The notes under the pieces: model-generated | Databases searched by the model: none | What the model saw: the letters and a program-made list of their open reading frames with translations, nothing else | Told to the model about the DNA's origin: nothing | Shown: one piece after another, positions 7,478 through 16,468 of the stretch | Numbering within the stretch: the stretch's first letter is position 1 | How the letters are laid out: each line of letters opens with the position of its first letter | Translations under genes and position numbers: made by a program | Assembly (NCBI GenBank): GCA_021848145.1 | Contig: JAJZMX010000001.1 | Location: forward strand, 1-64,000 | Source: a bacterium | Lineage (GTDB): Bacteria > Patescibacteriota > Saccharimonadia > Saccharimonadales > UBA4665 | Direction: 5' to 3' | DNA length: 64,000 nucleotides

Positions 7478-8299
7478 ATGACTGAGAAAAGGGCTGCCCT
7501 TAAAATAGAAAAGATTGATAAAAGCAAAATAACTAAAAACGAGCTTGCCAAGAGAAAAAAGAAACAGCTCAAATTTATTTCTGGCTCGGATACAGACAAA
7601 TATACCTTGCATGTGTATCAAGTGTTTAAAGACTTAGATTTTCAAAAAGACGTCAAAGCCTTAAGAAAATCTCTGGAGCAGCTATATTACAAAGATATTT
7701 CGTTAATAACATCTTATAATGACGACCATTTACTTATGGACGACAAGCGACTGATAAAAAATTTAGCTGATAAATACTGCATTGATTTGATGGACCTCGG
7801 AATATACGCGGATGGTCTTTTTGATAATGGAATGCTTTTTGGTAATCACGAAAGTATGTATGGTGGATTAAGTTATGAATATGTAGATAGCACACACTAT
7901 TTTTGCTATAAGATAGGTCCTAAAACTACGTTAGAACAAATCGTGAAAGATTGGCCCCTCATAAGAGAGATGCGACAACTTGTTTATGAATTATATGTAG
8001 GCAAGCCTATAAAAATTAAGACTAAAAGCAAATCCCCACAAAATCCAGAGCTGATTTATGCAATTTTTAAAGCACGTTCCAAAAATATAAAGTTTAGCGA
8101 AATATTTAAAACTTATCAGAATGGAAAATTATACGAAGGACAGCAAAATTCCAATCAGTTTAATAGTGAAGATAGCCTAGAAAGATACTACAGGAAGTAT
8201 AAGCCACACAAACTACCAAATAATTTGATAGATGAACGTCTAGATATTGATAAGAGAGTCTACGAGTCTTACTCTCGTAACTTAAAAGCGGACACTTAA
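7478..8299 (+). CDS. Hypothetical protein, 273 aa, lysine-rich N-terminus
   Basis: I do not recognise this protein. The first 35 residues are strongly basic (KSKITKNELAKRKKKQLKF), suggesting nucleic-acid contact. The rest is a mixed alpha/beta soluble protein with many Tyr and Asp residues and no membrane segment. A C-terminal stretch (ELIYAIFKARSKNIKFSEIF, then ERYYRKYKPHKLP) has the look of a helix-turn-helix-like or resolvase-tail-like unit, but no family can be named. The start is supported by TATAAT exactly 7 nt upstream (leaderless). A rho-independent terminator follows at 8371-8409. It lies in the accessory region near a decayed recombinase gene, so it may belong to a mobile element. 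Confidence 0.7.
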   Translation: MTEKRAALKIEKIDKSKITKNELAKRKKKQLKFISGSDTDKYTLHVYQVFKDLDFQKDVKALRKSLEQLYYKDISLITSYNDDHLLMDDKRLIKNLADKYCIDLMDLGIYADGLFDNGMLFGNHESMYGGLSYEYVDSTHYFCYKIGPKTTLEQIVKDWPLIREMRQLVYELYVGKPIKIKTKSKSPQNPELIYAIFKARSKNIKFSEIFKTYQNGKLYEGQQNSNQFNSEDSLERYYRKYKPHKLPNNLIDERLDIDKRVYESYSRNLKADT

Positions 8300-8409: not shown

Positions 8410-8470
8410 AATTAAGACGCTAAGGCTCATGGTCTTGGCAACAATTAATGTTCAAATTAAGGAGAAAGAC

Positions 8471-8887
8471 ATGAACTCAATAAATAAAGATGCGATAGCT
8501 TTTCTTAAGGCTGTTGATAGATGGGATTTCGACCAGTATCTGTCGTTCGATAGGCAATATAAGAAAATAGAAAAATACGCTAATAAAAATAATATGAAGA
8601 TTTGTATGGTCTTTGACAATTTTGGACCATCTGGTTTTGTAGCAAAGGAACTAGATGAAATGTTGTCTTATTGCTCTACAAACCCAAATATAAAGTACCT
8701 ATTAGTAGACAGTTACGAACGAATCACTAGGAGACCAGAAGATTTCTGTGATTGGCAAAATAAGTTCAATGCAATAGGTGTCACTATTAAATCAACTAGC
8801 CAAAACTACACGATTGTTCGTCCTTTGGAGTGGGGAGAATCTAGTAAGTTCCAGTCGGGGCTGAGAGGAGAGTGTTTGGTGGTTTAG
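8471..8887 (+). CDS. Serine-recombinase-like catalytic domain lacking the catalytic serine
   Basis: The 138-residue product aligns by eye with the N-terminal resolvase domain of large serine recombinases. AIAFLKAVDR sits where AIGYVRVS-type motifs lie. RQYKKIEKYANKNNMKI matches the Q-x-x-x-I-x-x-Y helix, and the FDNFGPSGFVAKELDEML segment matches the SG...RPELQRML region. LLVDSYERITRRPEDF matches the D-R-x-S-R active-site segment, followed by GVTIKSTSQ. The catalytic Ser (RVS) reads KAV here, so strand cleavage is not expected. There is no DNA-binding C-terminal part. I chose the ATG at 8471 because AAGGAG lies 6 nt upstream; an earlier in-frame ATG at 8429 has none. It could be a decayed integrase or a repurposed regulatory domain. 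Confidence 0.7.
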   Translation: MNSINKDAIAFLKAVDRWDFDQYLSFDRQYKKIEKYANKNNMKICMVFDNFGPSGFVAKELDEMLSYCSTNPNIKYLLVDSYERITRRPEDFCDWQNKFNAIGVTIKSTSQNYTIVRPLEWGESSKFQSGLRGECLVV

Positions 8888-9750: not shown

Positions 9751-9999
9751 TTAAACAGCTGGTTGCTCATTAGGCTTAAACTCATAAACGCCACGCATTA
9801 TCTCGTTCCACCTAATAATTTCGGCTACTAATTGTTTATAGTTGGATTGTATGTGGTTCACCATAGGAGAGTTTTCTATCTTAAAAGTATTGCTTAAGTG
9901 TTCTTCAGCCATTTCAACTTCATTAGCAAAACTAACAATAGCTTGGCAGTGTTTGTTTTTAAATATTTCAGATACTGATAATTGGCAAACCTTTTGCAA
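9751..9999 (-). CDS. Small hypothetical protein whose 3' end is repeated downstream twice
   Basis: This 82-residue frame starts with TTG; an ATG at residue 30 (9912) is an alternative start, and no ribosome site clearly decides. The product is soluble and helical. Its C-terminal half (QSNYKQLVAEIIRWNEIMRG then VYEFKP) recurs in two truncated copies at 12002-12106 and 12883-12987 with mostly silent or conservative changes, which argues that this reading frame is really translated. The three copies differ after KP: here NEQPAV, in both other copies TLA. I do not recognise the family. It lies convergent to the HTH gene and divergent from the peptide/ATP-grasp pair. Confidence 0.6.
   Translation of the reverse strand: MQKVCQLSVSEIFKNKHCQAIVSFANEVEMAEEHLSNTFKIENSPMVNHIQSNYKQLVAEIIRWNEIMRGVYEFKPNEQPAV
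9773..9864. repeat. Dispersed repeat copy R1 (92 bp)
   Basis: This is the first of three copies of a 91-92 bp sequence starting GGCTTAAACTC and ending GGTTCACCAT. It contains the last 30 or so codons of the minus-strand gene at 9751-9999. Compared with R3 it has three substitutions, two silent and one Ser-to-Thr. Confidence 0.9.
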
Positions 10000-10111: not shown

Positions 10112-10138
10112 TGTTAAAATTAGTATTGTAATAAGGAG
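10112..10138 (+). promoter_or_regulatory. Promoter and ribosome site of the peptide/ATP-grasp pair
   Basis: An extended -10 element, TGT followed by TAAAAT (10115-10120), predicts a start near 10127. AAGGAG (10133-10138) lies 7 nt before the ATG at 10146. The -35 is poor (TTGCAC at 10093), as usual for extended -10 promoters. Confidence 0.5.
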
Positions 10139-10145
10139 TAAGAAA

Positions 10146-10352
10146 ATGAGCTTAGAAACACTTTCAAGAGAACAAATTGGTAACGATAGTATTAGCGAGG
10201 AAACAGTACAAACTATTGGCATGACTGTTTTTGAAAAATTAGCGCAGGATACAGAGAATGAAGTCGCAAACGTTGAAGCTATAGTCCCTATTGAGATTAG
10301 AAATTCAGTAACCCGACTTCAGGATGGTCAGACAGTACCTGACGAACGCTAG
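10146..10352 (+). CDS. Candidate graspetide precursor peptide, 68 aa
   Basis: This short acidic peptide gene with a strong AAGGAG ribosome site lies 38 nt before an MvdC/MvdD-like ATP-grasp ligase. In graspetide (microviridin-type) loci the precursor is a peptide of this size encoded beside the ligase. A helical leader (about residues 1-50) would bind the enzyme, and a C-terminal core would carry Ser/Thr/Lys donors and Asp/Glu acceptors for side-chain ester or amide bonds. Here the C-terminus IRNSVTRLQDGQTVPDER offers Ser54, Thr56 and Thr63 with Asp60, Asp66 and Glu67. There is no membrane segment or double-Gly cleavage site. No known core motif (for example TxKYPSD) is present, so it would be a new class. 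The assignment rests on size, position and residue content. Confidence 0.6.
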   Translation: MSLETLSREQIGNDSISEETVQTIGMTVFEKLAQDTENEVANVEAIVPIEIRNSVTRLQDGQTVPDER

Positions 10353-10390
10353 AATTTAATCAGTATCATATTTTAACTTCTAATTGATAA

Positions 10391-11353
10391 ATGTCTGAAG
10401 TTGGAATTTTCTCTACGAGTATTGACGTTCCCACGTATGGGCCTGTGGCGGAAACCTTAATCTCTCGTGGATATAATGTGTGGATATACAATGCCGATAA
10501 GGTTGCACAAGGCTTAGATGCAATCGAGATTCGTGTTAATAATGTAGAAGACTTTGAGATTTATCAAAATGGAGCTAGTCATAATCTAAAAGAACTAAAA
10601 TCTGCTTGGTATAGGCATCCATACATATTCAGCCTTCAGATTGCCGATAAAGCTAGAAGTTTAAGTCTGGAAAAAGAAATTGATGCACTGCAAGAGTCGA
10701 TTTGGCGACAAATTCCAGATAATGCTTGGTTGAATCACCCCGAAACTATGGACAGGGCTAGAGCTAAACTAGCTCAACTGTCATTAGCCAAATTATTAGG
10801 ATTTAATATACCAAATACGTTAGTTACTAATAGGTGGTCATCTATAAATAAAGTTTTTGAAGATGAGCCCATAATAATCAAAATGTCCAAAGGTGTAGTT
10901 TATGATAACACTAAAGCTAATGTTCTATATACGACAGTACTAAGTAAAGAACAAAGAGATGGCCTATATGGCCATAATCCTTTCCCTGGCATTTATCAAG
11001 AATATTTAGATAAAAAAAGAGAATGGCGAATTACTGTTGTTGGCGAAGATGTCTTTGAGGCGGCAGTTTATACCGATAGTAATGCTAAAGATGATTGGAG
11101 AAAACACCAATTTACTGAAGGCGTTACTTTCAAAAAAGAGTCGATGGCATCAAGTGAAATAGAAAAATGTTTGGCTTATTTGGGGCATTTGGGACTAATT
11201 TATGGTGCATTTGATTTTGTCGAAGACAGTAATGGTAAGATAACATTCCTGGAATGCAATACTAATGGACAGTTTCGGTGGCTAGAAGATAGTTTAGGGT
11301 TTCCTATTTCTAATGCGATAGCCGACCGATTGGTTGATAAAATTAATCAATAA
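10391..11353 (+). CDS. MvdC/MvdD-type ATP-grasp ligase (candidate graspetide macrocyclase)
   Basis: This 320-residue ATP-grasp enzyme has the MvdD-like pre-ATP-grasp domain. The family uses ATP to activate Asp/Glu side chains of a ribosomal peptide and join them to Thr/Ser or Lys side chains. The marker segments are SAWYRHPYIFS (about 75-85), AWLNHPETMDRARAKLAQL (about 117-135), and GFNIPNTLVTNRW, all typical of this family. ATP-grasp features follow: a phosphate-binding strand IIIKMSKG (about 158-165), the IYQEYLDKKREWRITVVGED segment, and the metal-binding end FLECNTNGQFRWLE. No transporter or protease gene adjoins it. The ABC exporter at 14.7 kb is 3.3 kb away and is only a possible partner. 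A plain RimK-like ligase is less likely given the N-terminal domain. Confidence 0.85.
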   Translation: MSEVGIFSTSIDVPTYGPVAETLISRGYNVWIYNADKVAQGLDAIEIRVNNVEDFEIYQNGASHNLKELKSAWYRHPYIFSLQIADKARSLSLEKEIDALQESIWRQIPDNAWLNHPETMDRARAKLAQLSLAKLLGFNIPNTLVTNRWSSINKVFEDEPIIIKMSKGVVYDNTKANVLYTTVLSKEQRDGLYGHNPFPGIYQEYLDKKREWRITVVGEDVFEAAVYTDSNAKDDWRKHQFTEGVTFKKESMASSEIEKCLAYLGHLGLIYGAFDFVEDSNGKITFLECNTNGQFRWLEDSLGFPISNAIADRLVDKINQ

Positions 11354-11830
11354 TCATAACGAATATCTTTTTAAATGTTTCACAATATTATCTTGTTGCG
11401 GATTAGCTATAAGATTACTAAAAACAGCATCATCAACAAAATAAATACTAACTCCCTCTATGTTTAGAGCATTCAATACGTTCGTATAATCGATTTCATC
11501 TAATGGAGAAACAGAATCCCTACTGACCATTTCGTATTCATTTAATTCTTTTTGAGGTGTTTTATGAAAAGTTTCAGAAGGTAATATATATAAAGCTCCT
11601 CCATTATCTTTTTGAATTACATCCTCAGCCTCACCGCATATAACCACATAAGGACTTGAAGATTTTGAGTTCATTAATATGGGAAAACCCTTTGGCAACA
11701 TATACATAAGGCTTAATCTCTTGTCTTTGGTAGCAAAAACAAAGTCACCTATATATTTATTGTTACTTAAAGTACGTTGAGGTTTAATTGTTTTTAGATT
11801 CTTTATTGGTGAAGAATGGTATAGATTCAT
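11354..11830 (-). CDS. Hypothetical protein, possibly of the ADP-ribosyltransferase-like fold
   Basis: This frame runs about 158 residues from the ATG at 11830. I prefer this start over the longer frame from 11908 because TATACT (minus strand 11842-11837) lies exactly 7 nt upstream, as in other leaderless genes here. The N-terminus MNLYHSSPIKNLKTIKP, followed by DFVFATKDKRLSLMYML, resembles small bacterial proteins with an H-S/G-S ... F-A-T ... A pattern found in ART-like or RES-like folds. The resemblance is weak and the catalytic triad cannot be confirmed. It is convergent with the ATP-grasp gene with no gap. It could be a toxin-like or immunity-like gene; no function is claimed. Confidence 0.55.
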   Translation of the reverse strand: MNLYHSSPIKNLKTIKPQRTLSNNKYIGDFVFATKDKRLSLMYMLPKGFPILMNSKSSSPYVVICGEAEDVIQKDNGGALYILPSETFHKTPQKELNEYEMVSRDSVSPLDEIDYTNVLNALNIEGVSIYFVDDAVFSNLIANPQQDNIVKHLKRYSL

Positions 11831-11946: not shown

Positions 11947-12106
11947 GACGCTGCGACAGTAAAGACAGTAAAATTGAGAGGAATGTATGGAGTATCTTAT
12001 TCTAGGCTAATGTTGGCTTAAACTCATAAACACCACGCATTATCTCGTTCCACCTAATAATTTCTGCTACAATTTCTTTATAGTTGGATTGTATGTGGTT
12101 CACCAT
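11947..12106. repeat. Dispersed repeat copy R2 (160 bp)
   Basis: This copy contains the 92-bp core (12015-12106, ending GGTTCACCAT) plus about 68 bp to its left that is shared only with R3 (GACGCTGCGACAGTAAAGAC and onward). The left part includes short CGACAGTAA-like tandem units. It lies immediately before the MazEF promoter. Confidence 0.9.
12002..12106 (-). pseudogene. Fragment of the 82-aa gene (3' end copy in R2)
   Basis: The minus strand reads a 34-codon frame from ATG at 12106 to TAG at 12004-12002. It matches the C-terminal half of the gene at 9751-9999, with Gln-Leu to Glu-Ile changes and otherwise silent differences, and ends KPTLA. The N-terminal half of the gene is missing: the copy stops at GGTTCACCAT. 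It is either a relic or a very short translated peptide. Confidence 0.6.
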
Positions 12107-12123
12107 TCTATAACATGCCGGTA

Positions 12124-12164
12124 TTGACATATGTGGAGAGTGTGATTACAATAGTAATTACTAT
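12124..12164 (+). promoter_or_regulatory. MazEF promoter with palindromic operator
   Basis: TTGACA (12124-12129) and TACAAT (12147-12152) are spaced by 17 nt, a near-consensus promoter. The perfect palindrome ATAGTAATTACTAT (12151-12164) covers the end of the -10, the expected start of transcription (about 12159) and the first bases of the antitoxin ATG at 12163. This placement fits autorepression by an AbrB/MazE-type antitoxin. The message would be almost leaderless. Confidence 0.75.
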
Positions 12165-12399
12165 GCAGTCGACAATTATACAAATCGGAAATTCTAGGGG
12201 GGTGCGTCTTCCTAAAGATGTTCTTATTCTCAGTGGTATTAAAAAAAATATCGAGATAAAGGTTAAGAAAGGTGAAATAAAGATTGTGCCAGCAAAAGAA
12301 AATAAAGTTACAGATGACTTTGCTATTGCCTCAGAAGAATCTTTTGCTAAGGACTGGTTACGCCCGGAGGAGGAAGAGGCGTGGAAAGCTTATCAATAG
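12163..12399 (+). CDS. mazE: MazE-like antitoxin (AbrB/SpoVT fold), 78 aa
   Basis: The antitoxin binds DNA as a swapped-hairpin dimer and neutralises the MazF-type toxin. Residues 1-45 have the family signature: STIIQIGNSRGVRLPKDVL followed by GIKKNIEIKVKKGEIKIVP. The acidic C-terminal tail (SFAKDWLRPEEEEAWKAYQ) is the usual toxin-binding, intrinsically flexible part. I chose the ATG at 12163 rather than an earlier in-frame ATG at 12115. The promoter and palindrome lie between them, and the first residue of the conserved domain follows directly. The toxin gene overlaps its 3' end by 19 nt. Confidence 0.9.
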   Translation: MQSTIIQIGNSRGVRLPKDVLILSGIKKNIEIKVKKGEIKIVPAKENKVTDDFAIASEESFAKDWLRPEEEEAWKAYQ

Positions 12400-12716
12400 G
12401 CCAAGTTGTTTTAGCGACTTTCCCCTTTTCTGATTTATCTAGTAATAAACTTAGACCGTGCCTGGTGATAGGCCTGGCTGATTTTAACGATATCTTGCTT
12501 TGCCAGATAACAAGTAAAGACTATGGTAGCAGGAAAGCTGTGAAGCTATCAAAAACCGATTTTTCTAAAGGCTCGCTTGTAGTTAACAGTTTTATCCGTC
12601 CAGACAAGATAGCAACACTGGATAAAGTTCGGATAAAGCGAGAGCTTGGAACAATTACGGAGACAAAACTAAGTGAAGTCAAGGAAAGACTTAAAGTTAT
12701 ACTCGAAATAAGCTAA
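12381..12716 (+). CDS. mazF: MazF/PemK-family toxin (endoribonuclease)
   Basis: This is a 111-residue PemK/MazF-type toxin, a family of sequence-specific mRNA interferases. The N-terminal strand GQVVLATFPFSD, the RPCLVIGLADFNDILLCQIT segment (RP-x-LVI motif) and the strand around GSLVVNSFIRPDKIATLDK all fit the family. Arg in the RP motif and the Ser/Thr in QITS are the positions usually needed for RNA cleavage. The start is GTG at 12381 inside the antitoxin gene, with GGAGG upstream, giving translational coupling. The cut site cannot be predicted. Confidence 0.9.
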   Translation: MESLSIGQVVLATFPFSDLSSNKLRPCLVIGLADFNDILLCQITSKDYGSRKAVKLSKTDFSKGSLVVNSFIRPDKIATLDKVRIKRELGTITETKLSEVKERLKVILEIS

Positions 12717-12827: not shown

Positions 12828-12986
12828 GACGCTACGACAGTAACGACAGTAAAATGAGTGAAAATATTTGGAGTATCTTCTTCTAGGCTAATGTTGGCTT
12901 AAACTCATAAACGCCACGCATTATCTCGTTCCACCTAATAATTTCAGCCACTAATTGTTTATAGTTGGTTTGTATGTGGTTCACCA
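12828..12986. repeat. Dispersed repeat copy R3 (159 bp)
   Basis: This copy matches R2 over its whole length. The core 12896-12986 also matches R1. It starts GACGCTACGACAGTAACGAC and ends GGTTCACCA, followed by GAA instead of T. It separates the MazEF pair from the frameshifted coiled-coil gene. The rest of 12717-13023 holds no gene that I can see. Confidence 0.9.
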
Positions 12987-12987
12987 G
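12883..12987 (-). pseudogene. Fragment of the 82-aa gene (3' end copy in R3)
   Basis: The minus strand keeps an open frame of 34 codons matching the C-terminal half of the gene at 9751-9999. The first position is CTG instead of ATG, so it is probably not translated. Its stop and TLA ending are identical to the R2 copy. Confidence 0.6.
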
Positions 12988-14695: not shown

Positions 14696-16468
14696 ATGAG
14701 ACAGTTAGGAAAGATATTATTATCTGCAAAAGAGCTATGGCGCTATTACGTTGCCATAGGTATTTTTACTATATTGGTTAGTGCTTCGGCGCTAATGCAG
14801 CCTTTGCTTTCTGGTTGGGCTATTGGAGATATTTCAAAGGGAAAGTCTGCTAGCCTTGGATTTGCAGTATTTCTGGCTATAGGCATATTTTTGCTCGACT
14901 TTTTACAGAACATCTTCAATAACATCGGAGGTTATCTGGGCGACCAGATGTCCACTAAACTAAATTTTATTCTCAGTCGCCGTTATTTTGAGCACTTGCT
15001 AAATTTACCCCAGAGTTTCTTTGATCGAGAACTATCTGGAAAACTCATAAATCGTCTTAATCGTTCGATAAATCAGATTACTAATTTTATTCAGATGATG
15101 AGCAACAACTTCTTACAGTTCTTGTTTACTACCATCTTTGCTCTGGCGATAGTTGCATATTACAGCTGGCAGGTTGCACTGATGTTATTTGCCCTCTACC
15201 CAATCTACATTTTCATGACGGTACGGACTTCCGGAAAATGGAGTAGCTATCAAGAGCAGAAGAACCATAACTACGATATAGCTTCAGGTAGGTTTGCCGA
15301 GGCTATTGGCCAAATAAAGGTGGTAAAAAGCTATATTCAACAAGGCCGAGAACTTTCAATATTTAAGCATCACTATGGCAAAGTTAATGAACTTAATGCT
15401 CCACAGAGCAAGTTCTGGCACAAACAAGATGTAATGCGCAGGGTAGTTTTGAACGTTATTTTCTTTGCAGTATATTTGTATATTTTCGTTGAGGGGGTTA
15501 GGGGGGTAATGAGCCCTGGTGAAGCTGTCGCTCTAATTCTATATGGCATGCAGATACGAACACCAATATTCACAATCAGTATGATAGTCCAAAACACCCA
15601 AAGGGCAATAAGTGATAGTCGTGACTACTACCAAATCATGAACACCGAACCAGATGTCGTTGATGTTCCATCGGCAAAGACACTTGTCATAAATAACGGA
15701 GAAATAATATTTGATAGTGTTAACTTTGGATACAGTAAAGATAGTACAGTACTAAAAAACATAAGTTTTACTATTGATCCCAACTGTAAAGTTGCACTTG
15801 TTGGAGAATCGGGTGAGGGAAAGTCGACCTTAACGAATTTACTACTAAGACTCTACGACGTAACTTCTGGCAAAATTTTAATTGATGGACAGAATATATC
15901 TCAAGTAACACAAGATAGTCTTAGGAGTAATATTGGTGTGGTTTTTCAGGAACCCGCTTTGTTCAGTGGAACTATTAGAGAGAATATATCCTATGCAAAT
16001 AACAATGCTTCTTATGAGGATATTGTTAGAGCCGCTAAGGCAGCAAATGCTGACGAATTTATCTCTAAGTTTGAAAAAGGGTACGATACAGAGATTGGTG
16101 AGCGAGGCCTTAAACTGAGCGGTGGACAGAAGCAGCGTATTGCCATTGCGAGAGCACTACTTAAAAACCCCCCAATATTAATACTTGACGAAGCGACTTC
16201 TAGCTTGGACAGCAAAAGTGAACATATGGTTCAGCAAGCACTGGAACATTTGATGAAAGATAGGACAACCCTAATAATAGCCCATAGGCTGAGCACTATT
16301 AGTCAGGTAGATAAAATTATAACTCTAAAGAACGGAACAGTTGATGAGATAGGTGCTCCACGGGACTTAGCTAAAAGTGGTGGAATATATTCACAACTAC
16401 TTAATTTACAGCATCAAGCCACCGAAGCTGGAGATAAGAAACTTAAAGAATTTGAGATTGCCATCTGA
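14696..16468 (+). CDS. ABC transporter, fused permease and ATPase (ABCB/MsbA-like exporter)
   Basis: This 590-residue half-transporter works as a homodimer or with a partner. About six membrane segments lie within residues 15-300, beginning YYVAIGIFTILVSASALMQ. The nucleotide-binding domain has Walker A GESGEGKST near 370, the Q-loop GVVFQEPALFS, the ABC signature LSGGQKQRIAIARAL near 475, Walker B ILILDEATSSLD near 497, and the H-loop IAHRLST. The length is normal for the family. It is a single gene rather than a pair, so a homodimer is likely. The substrate is unknown: lipid, drug or peptide export are all possible. It is 3.3 kb from the candidate graspetide locus with unrelated genes between, so a link is speculative. 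Confidence 0.92.
   Translation: MRQLGKILLSAKELWRYYVAIGIFTILVSASALMQPLLSGWAIGDISKGKSASLGFAVFLAIGIFLLDFLQNIFNNIGGYLGDQMSTKLNFILSRRYFEHLLNLPQSFFDRELSGKLINRLNRSINQITNFIQMMSNNFLQFLFTTIFALAIVAYYSWQVALMLFALYPIYIFMTVRTSGKWSSYQEQKNHNYDIASGRFAEAIGQIKVVKSYIQQGRELSIFKHHYGKVNELNAPQSKFWHKQDVMRRVVLNVIFFAVYLYIFVEGVRGVMSPGEAVALILYGMQIRTPIFTISMIVQNTQRAISDSRDYYQIMNTEPDVVDVPSAKTLVINNGEIIFDSVNFGYSKDSTVLKNISFTIDPNCKVALVGESGEGKSTLTNLLLRLYDVTSGKILIDGQNISQVTQDSLRSNIGVVFQEPALFSGTIRENISYANNNASYEDIVRAAKAANADEFISKFEKGYDTEIGERGLKLSGGQKQRIAIARALLKNPPILILDEATSSLDSKSEHMVQQALEHLMKDRTTLIIAHRLSTISQVDKIITLKNGTVDEIGAPRDLAKSGGIYSQLLNLQHQATEAGDKKLKEFEIAI

What the first reader, a model, noticed from the sequence alone, without database searches (positions are those of the whole stretch)
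10112..11353. Candidate graspetide (ester/amide-linked RiPP) locus in a CPR bacterium
A 68-residue peptide gene with a strong ribosome site lies 38 nt before an ATP-grasp ligase with MvdC/MvdD-specific segments (WYRHP, WLNHP, IPNTLVTN). This is the minimal layout of a graspetide cluster. The peptide's C-terminus offers three Ser/Thr donors and three Asp/Glu acceptors but no known core motif, so it could be a new class. A reduced, probably episymbiotic organism making a cross-linked peptide would suggest signalling or warfare towards its host or rivals.
Basis: partly seen in the sequence, partly recalled or inferred. Interest (0 to 1): 0.82.

Follow-up and report, generated by a model that had tools for sequence, protein, structure and literature searches.

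The report
Mobile graspetide gene cassette in Saccharibacteria
A tiny, probably host-dependent bacterium carries a two-gene kit that very likely makes a small cross-linked peptide of a known class (a graspetide), with a peptide sequence not described in the papers I could read, on a piece of DNA that looks mobile and always next to a third gene of unknown function.

Summary
A 68-aa ORF (10146-10352, Shine-Dalgarno AAGGAG) lies 38 nt before a 320-aa ATP-grasp ligase (10391-11353). The ligase is graspetide-type: TIGR04187, MvdC and MvdD at 1e-43 to 1e-49 against RimK at 2e-9. Conservation is RiPP-like: leader helix and core NSxTxxxDGQTxPDE are constrained (pN/pS 0.18 and 0.16), the rest is loose (0.68). 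All six proposed donors and acceptors are invariant.

Corrections: graspetides in CPR bacteria were already reported (Makarova 2022). The proline-less leader and this core match no motif in the texts I could read, so this is a new variant, not a new class.

Additions: a DUF6886-like gene lies convergent and flush with the ligase stop in all nine copies assembled that far. The unit behaves as a cassette in an island downstream of tRNA-Glu, among toxin-antitoxin genes and serine recombinases. No C39 peptidase was found in the genome, so leader removal and export are open. Ring formation and any role in warfare or signalling are untested.

The parts
10133..10138 (+). Shine-Dalgarno AAGGAG, 7 nt before the precursor start
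   Evidence: conserved in L002 and L003
10146..10352 (+). graspetide precursor, 68 aa
10218..10244 (+). predicted leader helix, residues 25-33 GMTVFEKLA
   Evidence: pN/pS 0.18 over 11 columns; motif kept in distant relatives
10302..10349 (+). predicted core, residues 53-68 NSVTRLQDGQTVPDER; S54, T56, D60, T63, D66, E67 invariant in 8 orthologues
   Evidence: pN/pS 0.16
10391..11353 (+). graspetide-type ATP-grasp ligase, 320 aa; conserved DWR, GAFD and LECN segments
11354..11830 (-). DUF6886-like protein, 158 aa, convergent, stop codon abutting the ligase stop
9855..9864 (.). left cassette boundary GGTTCACCAT; in G008:C61 and G012:C28 the same point is the 3' end of tRNA-Glu
11994..12106 (.). 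right-end direct repeat of the cassette; also at 9765-9864 and 12875-12987
12115..12716 (+). neighbouring interval between repeats: MazE-like antitoxin (12115-12399) and PemK/MazF toxin (12381-12716)
8429..8887 (+). fragment of a serine recombinase (resolvase N-terminal domain only), upstream of the cassette

Best explanation
A graspetide biosynthesis cassette. The ligase binds the helix at residues 25-33 of the precursor, uses ATP to phosphorylate core carboxylates (D60, D66, E67), and S54, T56 and T63 hydroxyls attack them, giving up to three side-chain ester rings (up to -54 Da). An unknown protease removes the leader. Precursor, ligase and a conserved DUF6886-like partner travel together as a cassette in an island downstream of tRNA-Glu that also collects toxin-antitoxin genes, so the product most likely serves conflict (protease inhibition or growth interference against competitors, phage or host) rather than housekeeping. 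Shown here: gene identity, linkage, conservation pattern, cassette context. Inferred from the family: ring chemistry. Guessed from context: biological role (about 0.35).
For: Graspetide profiles far above RimK; solved graspetide ligases are the nearest structures; catalytic segments conserved; peptide upstream in 9 of 9 testable copies; constrained leader and core around a loose remainder, all six donors and acceptors invariant; Saccharibacteria-only clade with 100/100 support; third gene in 9 of 9 testable copies; tRNA-Glu junctions, repeats and recombinases.
Against: No product was measured. The ligase is below every curated NCBIfam cut-off. The leader lacks the usual proline, the core fits no motif I could find, there is no GG site, and no C39 peptidase is in the genome. 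Several copies are broken: stop in G085, frameshift in G009, frameshifted precursor in G008:C42, remnant in G012:C12. The cassette itself has no exporter.
Confidence: 0.82

Rival explanations
1. The ligase is a RimK-like enzyme that adds amino acids to a protein, and the small ORF is incidental.
For: Weak RimK-family matches over the shared ATP-grasp domain (PHROG ribosomal S6 transferase 7e-16).
Against: Graspetide profiles cover the whole protein and score far higher; MvdD pre-ATP-grasp domain detected; conserved precursor.
Confidence: 0.03
2. The enzyme modifies this precursor but does not make side-chain rings, for example linking it to another molecule or amino acid.
For: Core order S,T,D,T,D,E differs from microviridin, and ring partners cannot be read from sequence.
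Against: Three invariant donors and three invariant acceptors in a 14-residue stretch; the characterised relatives named in PMC13097080 make side-chain rings.
Confidence: 0.06
3. An intracellular control module: the modified peptide regulates the DUF6886-like protein (possibly an ADP-ribosyltransferase-fold enzyme), comparable to a toxin-antitoxin pair.
For: Third gene convergent and flush in 9 of 9 testable copies; no C39 peptidase and no exporter in the cassette; toxin-antitoxin neighbours; weak structural match to a rifampin ADP-ribosyltransferase.
Against: DUF6886-like genes also occur without the ligase; no significant PDB fold match; opposite strands argue against one transcript.
Confidence: 0.15
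4. A decaying locus without function in this genome.
For: Broken copies in relatives and fragmented recombinase upstream.
Against: In the window all three ORFs are intact and pN/pS is well below 1 at the functional segments.
Confidence: 0.06

Closest known systems
Microviridin ligases MvdC/MvdD and the AMdnB and CdnC ligases with their precursors
   Same: ATP-grasp ligase of the same family; small precursor just upstream with N-terminal helix and C-terminal core
   Different: Ligase at or below about 29% identity to the cyanobacterial relatives found, separate clade; leader TVFEKLA instead of PFFARFL; core order S,T,D,T,D,E rather than T,K,S,D,E,E (microviridin core order from own knowledge)
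TIGR04187 (GRASP_SAV_5884) ligases, including MirB of rosaritide
   Same: Best-scoring curated family
   Different: 168 bits against a cut-off of 350; no PpiC-type partner seen in the cassette, a DUF6886-like gene instead
CPR graspetide branches 1 and 2 (Makarova et al. 2022, PMC8939145)
   Same: Graspetide loci in CPR bacteria, T/S and D-rich cores, small operons
   Different: Those precursors share Phhx(1,2)h leaders and mostly TxxxTx(6-10)Dx(1-4)D cores, and their loci often carry cluster 23, TPR or peptidase genes; none of these is in this cassette. Most other Patescibacteria ligases sampled fall outside this clade.
Carter et al. 2026 groups 27 and 42 (PMC13097080)
   Same: Candidate-phylum graspetides; group 42 with DUF6624, which also occurs beside distant relatives of this ligase
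   Different: DUF6886 not mentioned in the main text; group core motifs not readable here

Membership tests
Graspetide (RiPP class) | ATP-grasp ligase of the MvdC/MvdD/TIGR04187 type, not RimK | tested here: met
   (2e-49 vs 1.8e-9); below curated cut-offs
Graspetide (RiPP class) | Conserved ligase catalytic segments | tested here: met
   DWR, GAFD and LExN segments conserved in 14 homologues
Graspetide (RiPP class) | Conserved precursor gene next to the ligase | tested here: met
   9 of 9 testable copies, one frameshifted
Graspetide (RiPP class) | Core with conserved Ser/Thr/Lys donors and Asp/Glu acceptors | tested here: met
   six invariant residues
Graspetide (RiPP class) | Ester or amide rings, -18 Da each | not testable with these tools
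   needs co-expression and mass spectrometry
Graspetide leader motif Phhx(1,2)h (about half of known precursors, PMC8939145) | Proline at the start of the helix motif | tested here: not met
   Thr or Ser in its place in the window clade
Microviridin | PFFARFL leader and TxKxPSD-type core | tested here: not met
   sequence of 10146-10352; ligase in another clade
CPR branch 1 graspetide (Makarova 2022) | Core TxxxTx(6-10)Dx(1-4)D | tested here: not met
   core NSVTRLQDGQTVPDER has no TxxxT
RimK-type glutamate ligase | RimK profile as best match, no dedicated precursor | tested here: not met
ADP-ribosyltransferase fold (third gene) | Significant fold match to a solved ART | tested here: inconclusive
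   PDB none significant; viral predicted structures match, one named rifampin ART at probability 0.98 but E 0.06

The most novel reading that the evidence does not exclude
A mobile weapon or addiction cassette of episymbiotic bacteria: a graspetide with a new ring topology and a dedicated DUF6886-like partner acting as immunity, activator or effector, shuttled among Saccharibacteria by serine recombinases at tRNA-Glu to govern competition on a shared host cell.
Probability: 0.2. Interest if true: 0.85.

Novelty: new variant of a known kind. Interest (0 to 1): 0.55.

Why it matters
Little is known about peptides that episymbiotic CPR bacteria make. This locus is compact, intact and testable in E. 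coli, and its residue-level predictions now rest on invariance across eight orthologues. Its place in a tRNA-Glu island with toxin-antitoxin genes gives a concrete reason to suspect a role in conflict, and the invariant DUF6886-like neighbour is a fresh lead on function.

Tried and rejected
Viral collection scan with the ligase: no relatives. First DUF6886-like model was poor (pLDDT 64.5) and its PDB search meaningless; a deeper alignment gave pLDDT 94 but still no significant PDB match, so the ART-fold idea rests on BFVD matches only. Promoter-like sites were no more frequent than in shuffles, so no promoter is claimed. PADLOC gave nothing for precursor, ligase or partner. The ABC transporter at 14696-16468 was considered as exporter: it lies outside the cassette and has no C39 domain, so it is left out. 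Transfer of the window's ligase from Actinobacteria was considered and rejected: only the second Saccharibacteria group nests with them. Searches failed on input errors.

Full report
Observation. The window holds a 68-codon ORF at 10146-10352 with AAGGAG seven bases upstream, then 38 nt, then a 320-codon ORF at 10391-11353.

Ligase identity. NCBIfam ranks the graspetide maturases TIGR04187 (2e-49), MvdC (2e-46) and MvdD (3e-43) far above RimK (2e-9). None reaches its curated cut-off, so it is a divergent member. The nearest solved proteins are two entries named ATP grasp ligase (5ig9, 5ig8), AMdnB (7m4s) and CdnC (7mgv), E 2e-27 to 5e-23. Catalytic segments are conserved across 14 homologues. 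Two maximum-likelihood trees put it in a Saccharibacteria-only clade (100/100), apart from cyanobacterial, actinobacterial and other Patescibacteria ligases. A second Saccharibacteria group (L015, L016, L023, L049, L050) falls with two Pseudonocardiaceae ligases (seven-row set 100/99), which suggests gene exchange with Actinobacteria, the phylum of cultured Saccharibacteria hosts (PMC10633639 abstract).

Precursor. Homologues lie directly upstream of the ligase in all nine copies whose upstream DNA is assembled (G000, G008 three times, G012, G013, G014, G009, G085), one of them frameshifted (G008:C42). Eight orthologues align end to end. pN/pS is 0.16 in the 16-residue core, 0.18 in the leader helix and 0.68 elsewhere. 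That pattern is what a RiPP precursor predicts and an accidental ORF does not. S54, T56, D60, T63, D66 and E67 are invariant; the last residue is not. More distant relatives keep a related leader motif, roughly [TS]-h-h-[EQ]-x-[LF], with mostly unrelated cores; some share GGQTVPD or GGGTVPD (L055, L007). A strict form of the motif is in 9 of 13 precursors against 0.0065 expected in shuffles, but it was chosen after seeing the data. It lacks the proline of the published Phhx(1,2)h leader.

Distribution. 23 of 393 genomes of the order and 15 of 380 of the phylum sample carry a relative. Named relatives are Candidatus Saccharibacteria metagenome bins. The window's own type was seen in several genomes of its genus and in G085 of another genus.

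Third gene. In all nine copies assembled past the ligase (the above without G008:C42, plus G006) a DUF6886-like gene runs convergently; in the window its stop codon touches the ligase stop (11354-11830). It also occurs without the ligase in other genomes. AlphaFold2 gives pLDDT 94. PDB search is negative. Viral predicted structures match at probability near 1; one annotated rifampin ADP-ribosyltransferase matches at 0.98 but E 0.06. Invariant Y4, H5, T34, E100 and S103 would suit an ART-type site. This is a lead only.

Mobility. DNA homology with relatives begins at window 9855, GGTTCACCAT. In G008:C61 and G012:C28 that point is the 3' end of tRNA-Glu. In G008:C42 a 90-codon gene and a GGGTCACCAT junction lie between tRNA-Glu and the cassette. 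In G013 and G009 the cassette is about 3.8 and 15 kb downstream of tRNA-Glu in the same orientation. The right end in four relatives is a direct repeat of about 110 bp that is present three times in the window (9765-9864, 11994-12106, 12875-12987), with a MazE/PemK pair in the next interval. Serine recombinase genes end inside the tRNA-Glu in G013, G015 and G009; short minus-strand ORFs with the same tail (VIPRGIEPLLPG) do so in G007 and on contig C2 of this genome. RelBE-, ParE- and VapBC-like pairs (my reading of the sequences, not scanned) share the island in relatives. In this genome tRNA-Glu sits near the end of contig C2 (91006-91080 of 91390), so the link to the window could not be closed. 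The repeats encode a conserved protein tail on the minus strand, so they may be recombined gene ends rather than classical attachment sites.

Mechanism. By homology the ligase docks on the leader helix, phosphorylates core carboxylates and joins them to core hydroxyls, up to three times. The chemistry is inferred from the family (PMC13097080). Leader removal is unexplained: no GG site in the precursor, no C39 peptidase found in the 97.8% complete genome, no protease or transporter in the cassette. A role in conflict is inferred from the company it keeps.

What is known. Makarova et al. 2022 (PMC8939145) reported graspetide loci in CPR bacteria and suggested outsourced offence, host interaction or superinfection exclusion. 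Carter et al. 2026 (PMC13097080) list two groups with many candidate-phylum members. The searches of these main texts found no Saccharibacteria and no DUF6886; a search of the Makarova text for TVPD and DGQTV found none. Their supplements and most subscription papers were out of reach. I therefore call it a new variant of a known kind.

Noticed in passing
window 9765-9864, 11994-12106, 12875-12987; L031-L034, L173: Direct repeats ending in GGTTCACCAT separate small gene cassettes in an array that starts at tRNA-Glu in several Saccharibacteria; the repeats carry a conserved protein tail on the minus strand. It may be a little-described cassette-collecting island.
   Followed up: partly
L015, L016, L023, L049, L050: A second group of Saccharibacteria graspetide ligases nests with Pseudonocardiaceae ligases (Labedaea, Actinophytocola), with PFG-type leaders: possible exchange with Actinobacteria.
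   Followed up: partly
L006, L034, L029 15509-15713, L025: Several copies are broken: in-frame stop (G085), frameshift (G009), frameshifted precursor (G008:C42), remnant with three stops (G012:C12). The breaks in G085 and G009 lie close together near the conserved KKREW segment.
   Followed up: partly
L009, L011, L020, L021, L014, L055: In more distant relatives a DUF6624-like gene lies beside the precursor (DUF6624 confirmed by Pfam for L011 only), as in published group 42 and others.
   Followed up: partly
L074 1489-2818: Another DUF6886 gene lies next to a different, RimK-like ATP-grasp gene, an unexplained second pairing of DUF6886 with an ATP-grasp enzyme.
   Followed up: no
window 7478-8299; L173 3394-4080: A 273-aa protein without Pfam match resembles, by eye in its C-terminal part, a gene beside an integrase in G009; probably part of the same family of integrative elements.
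   Followed up: no
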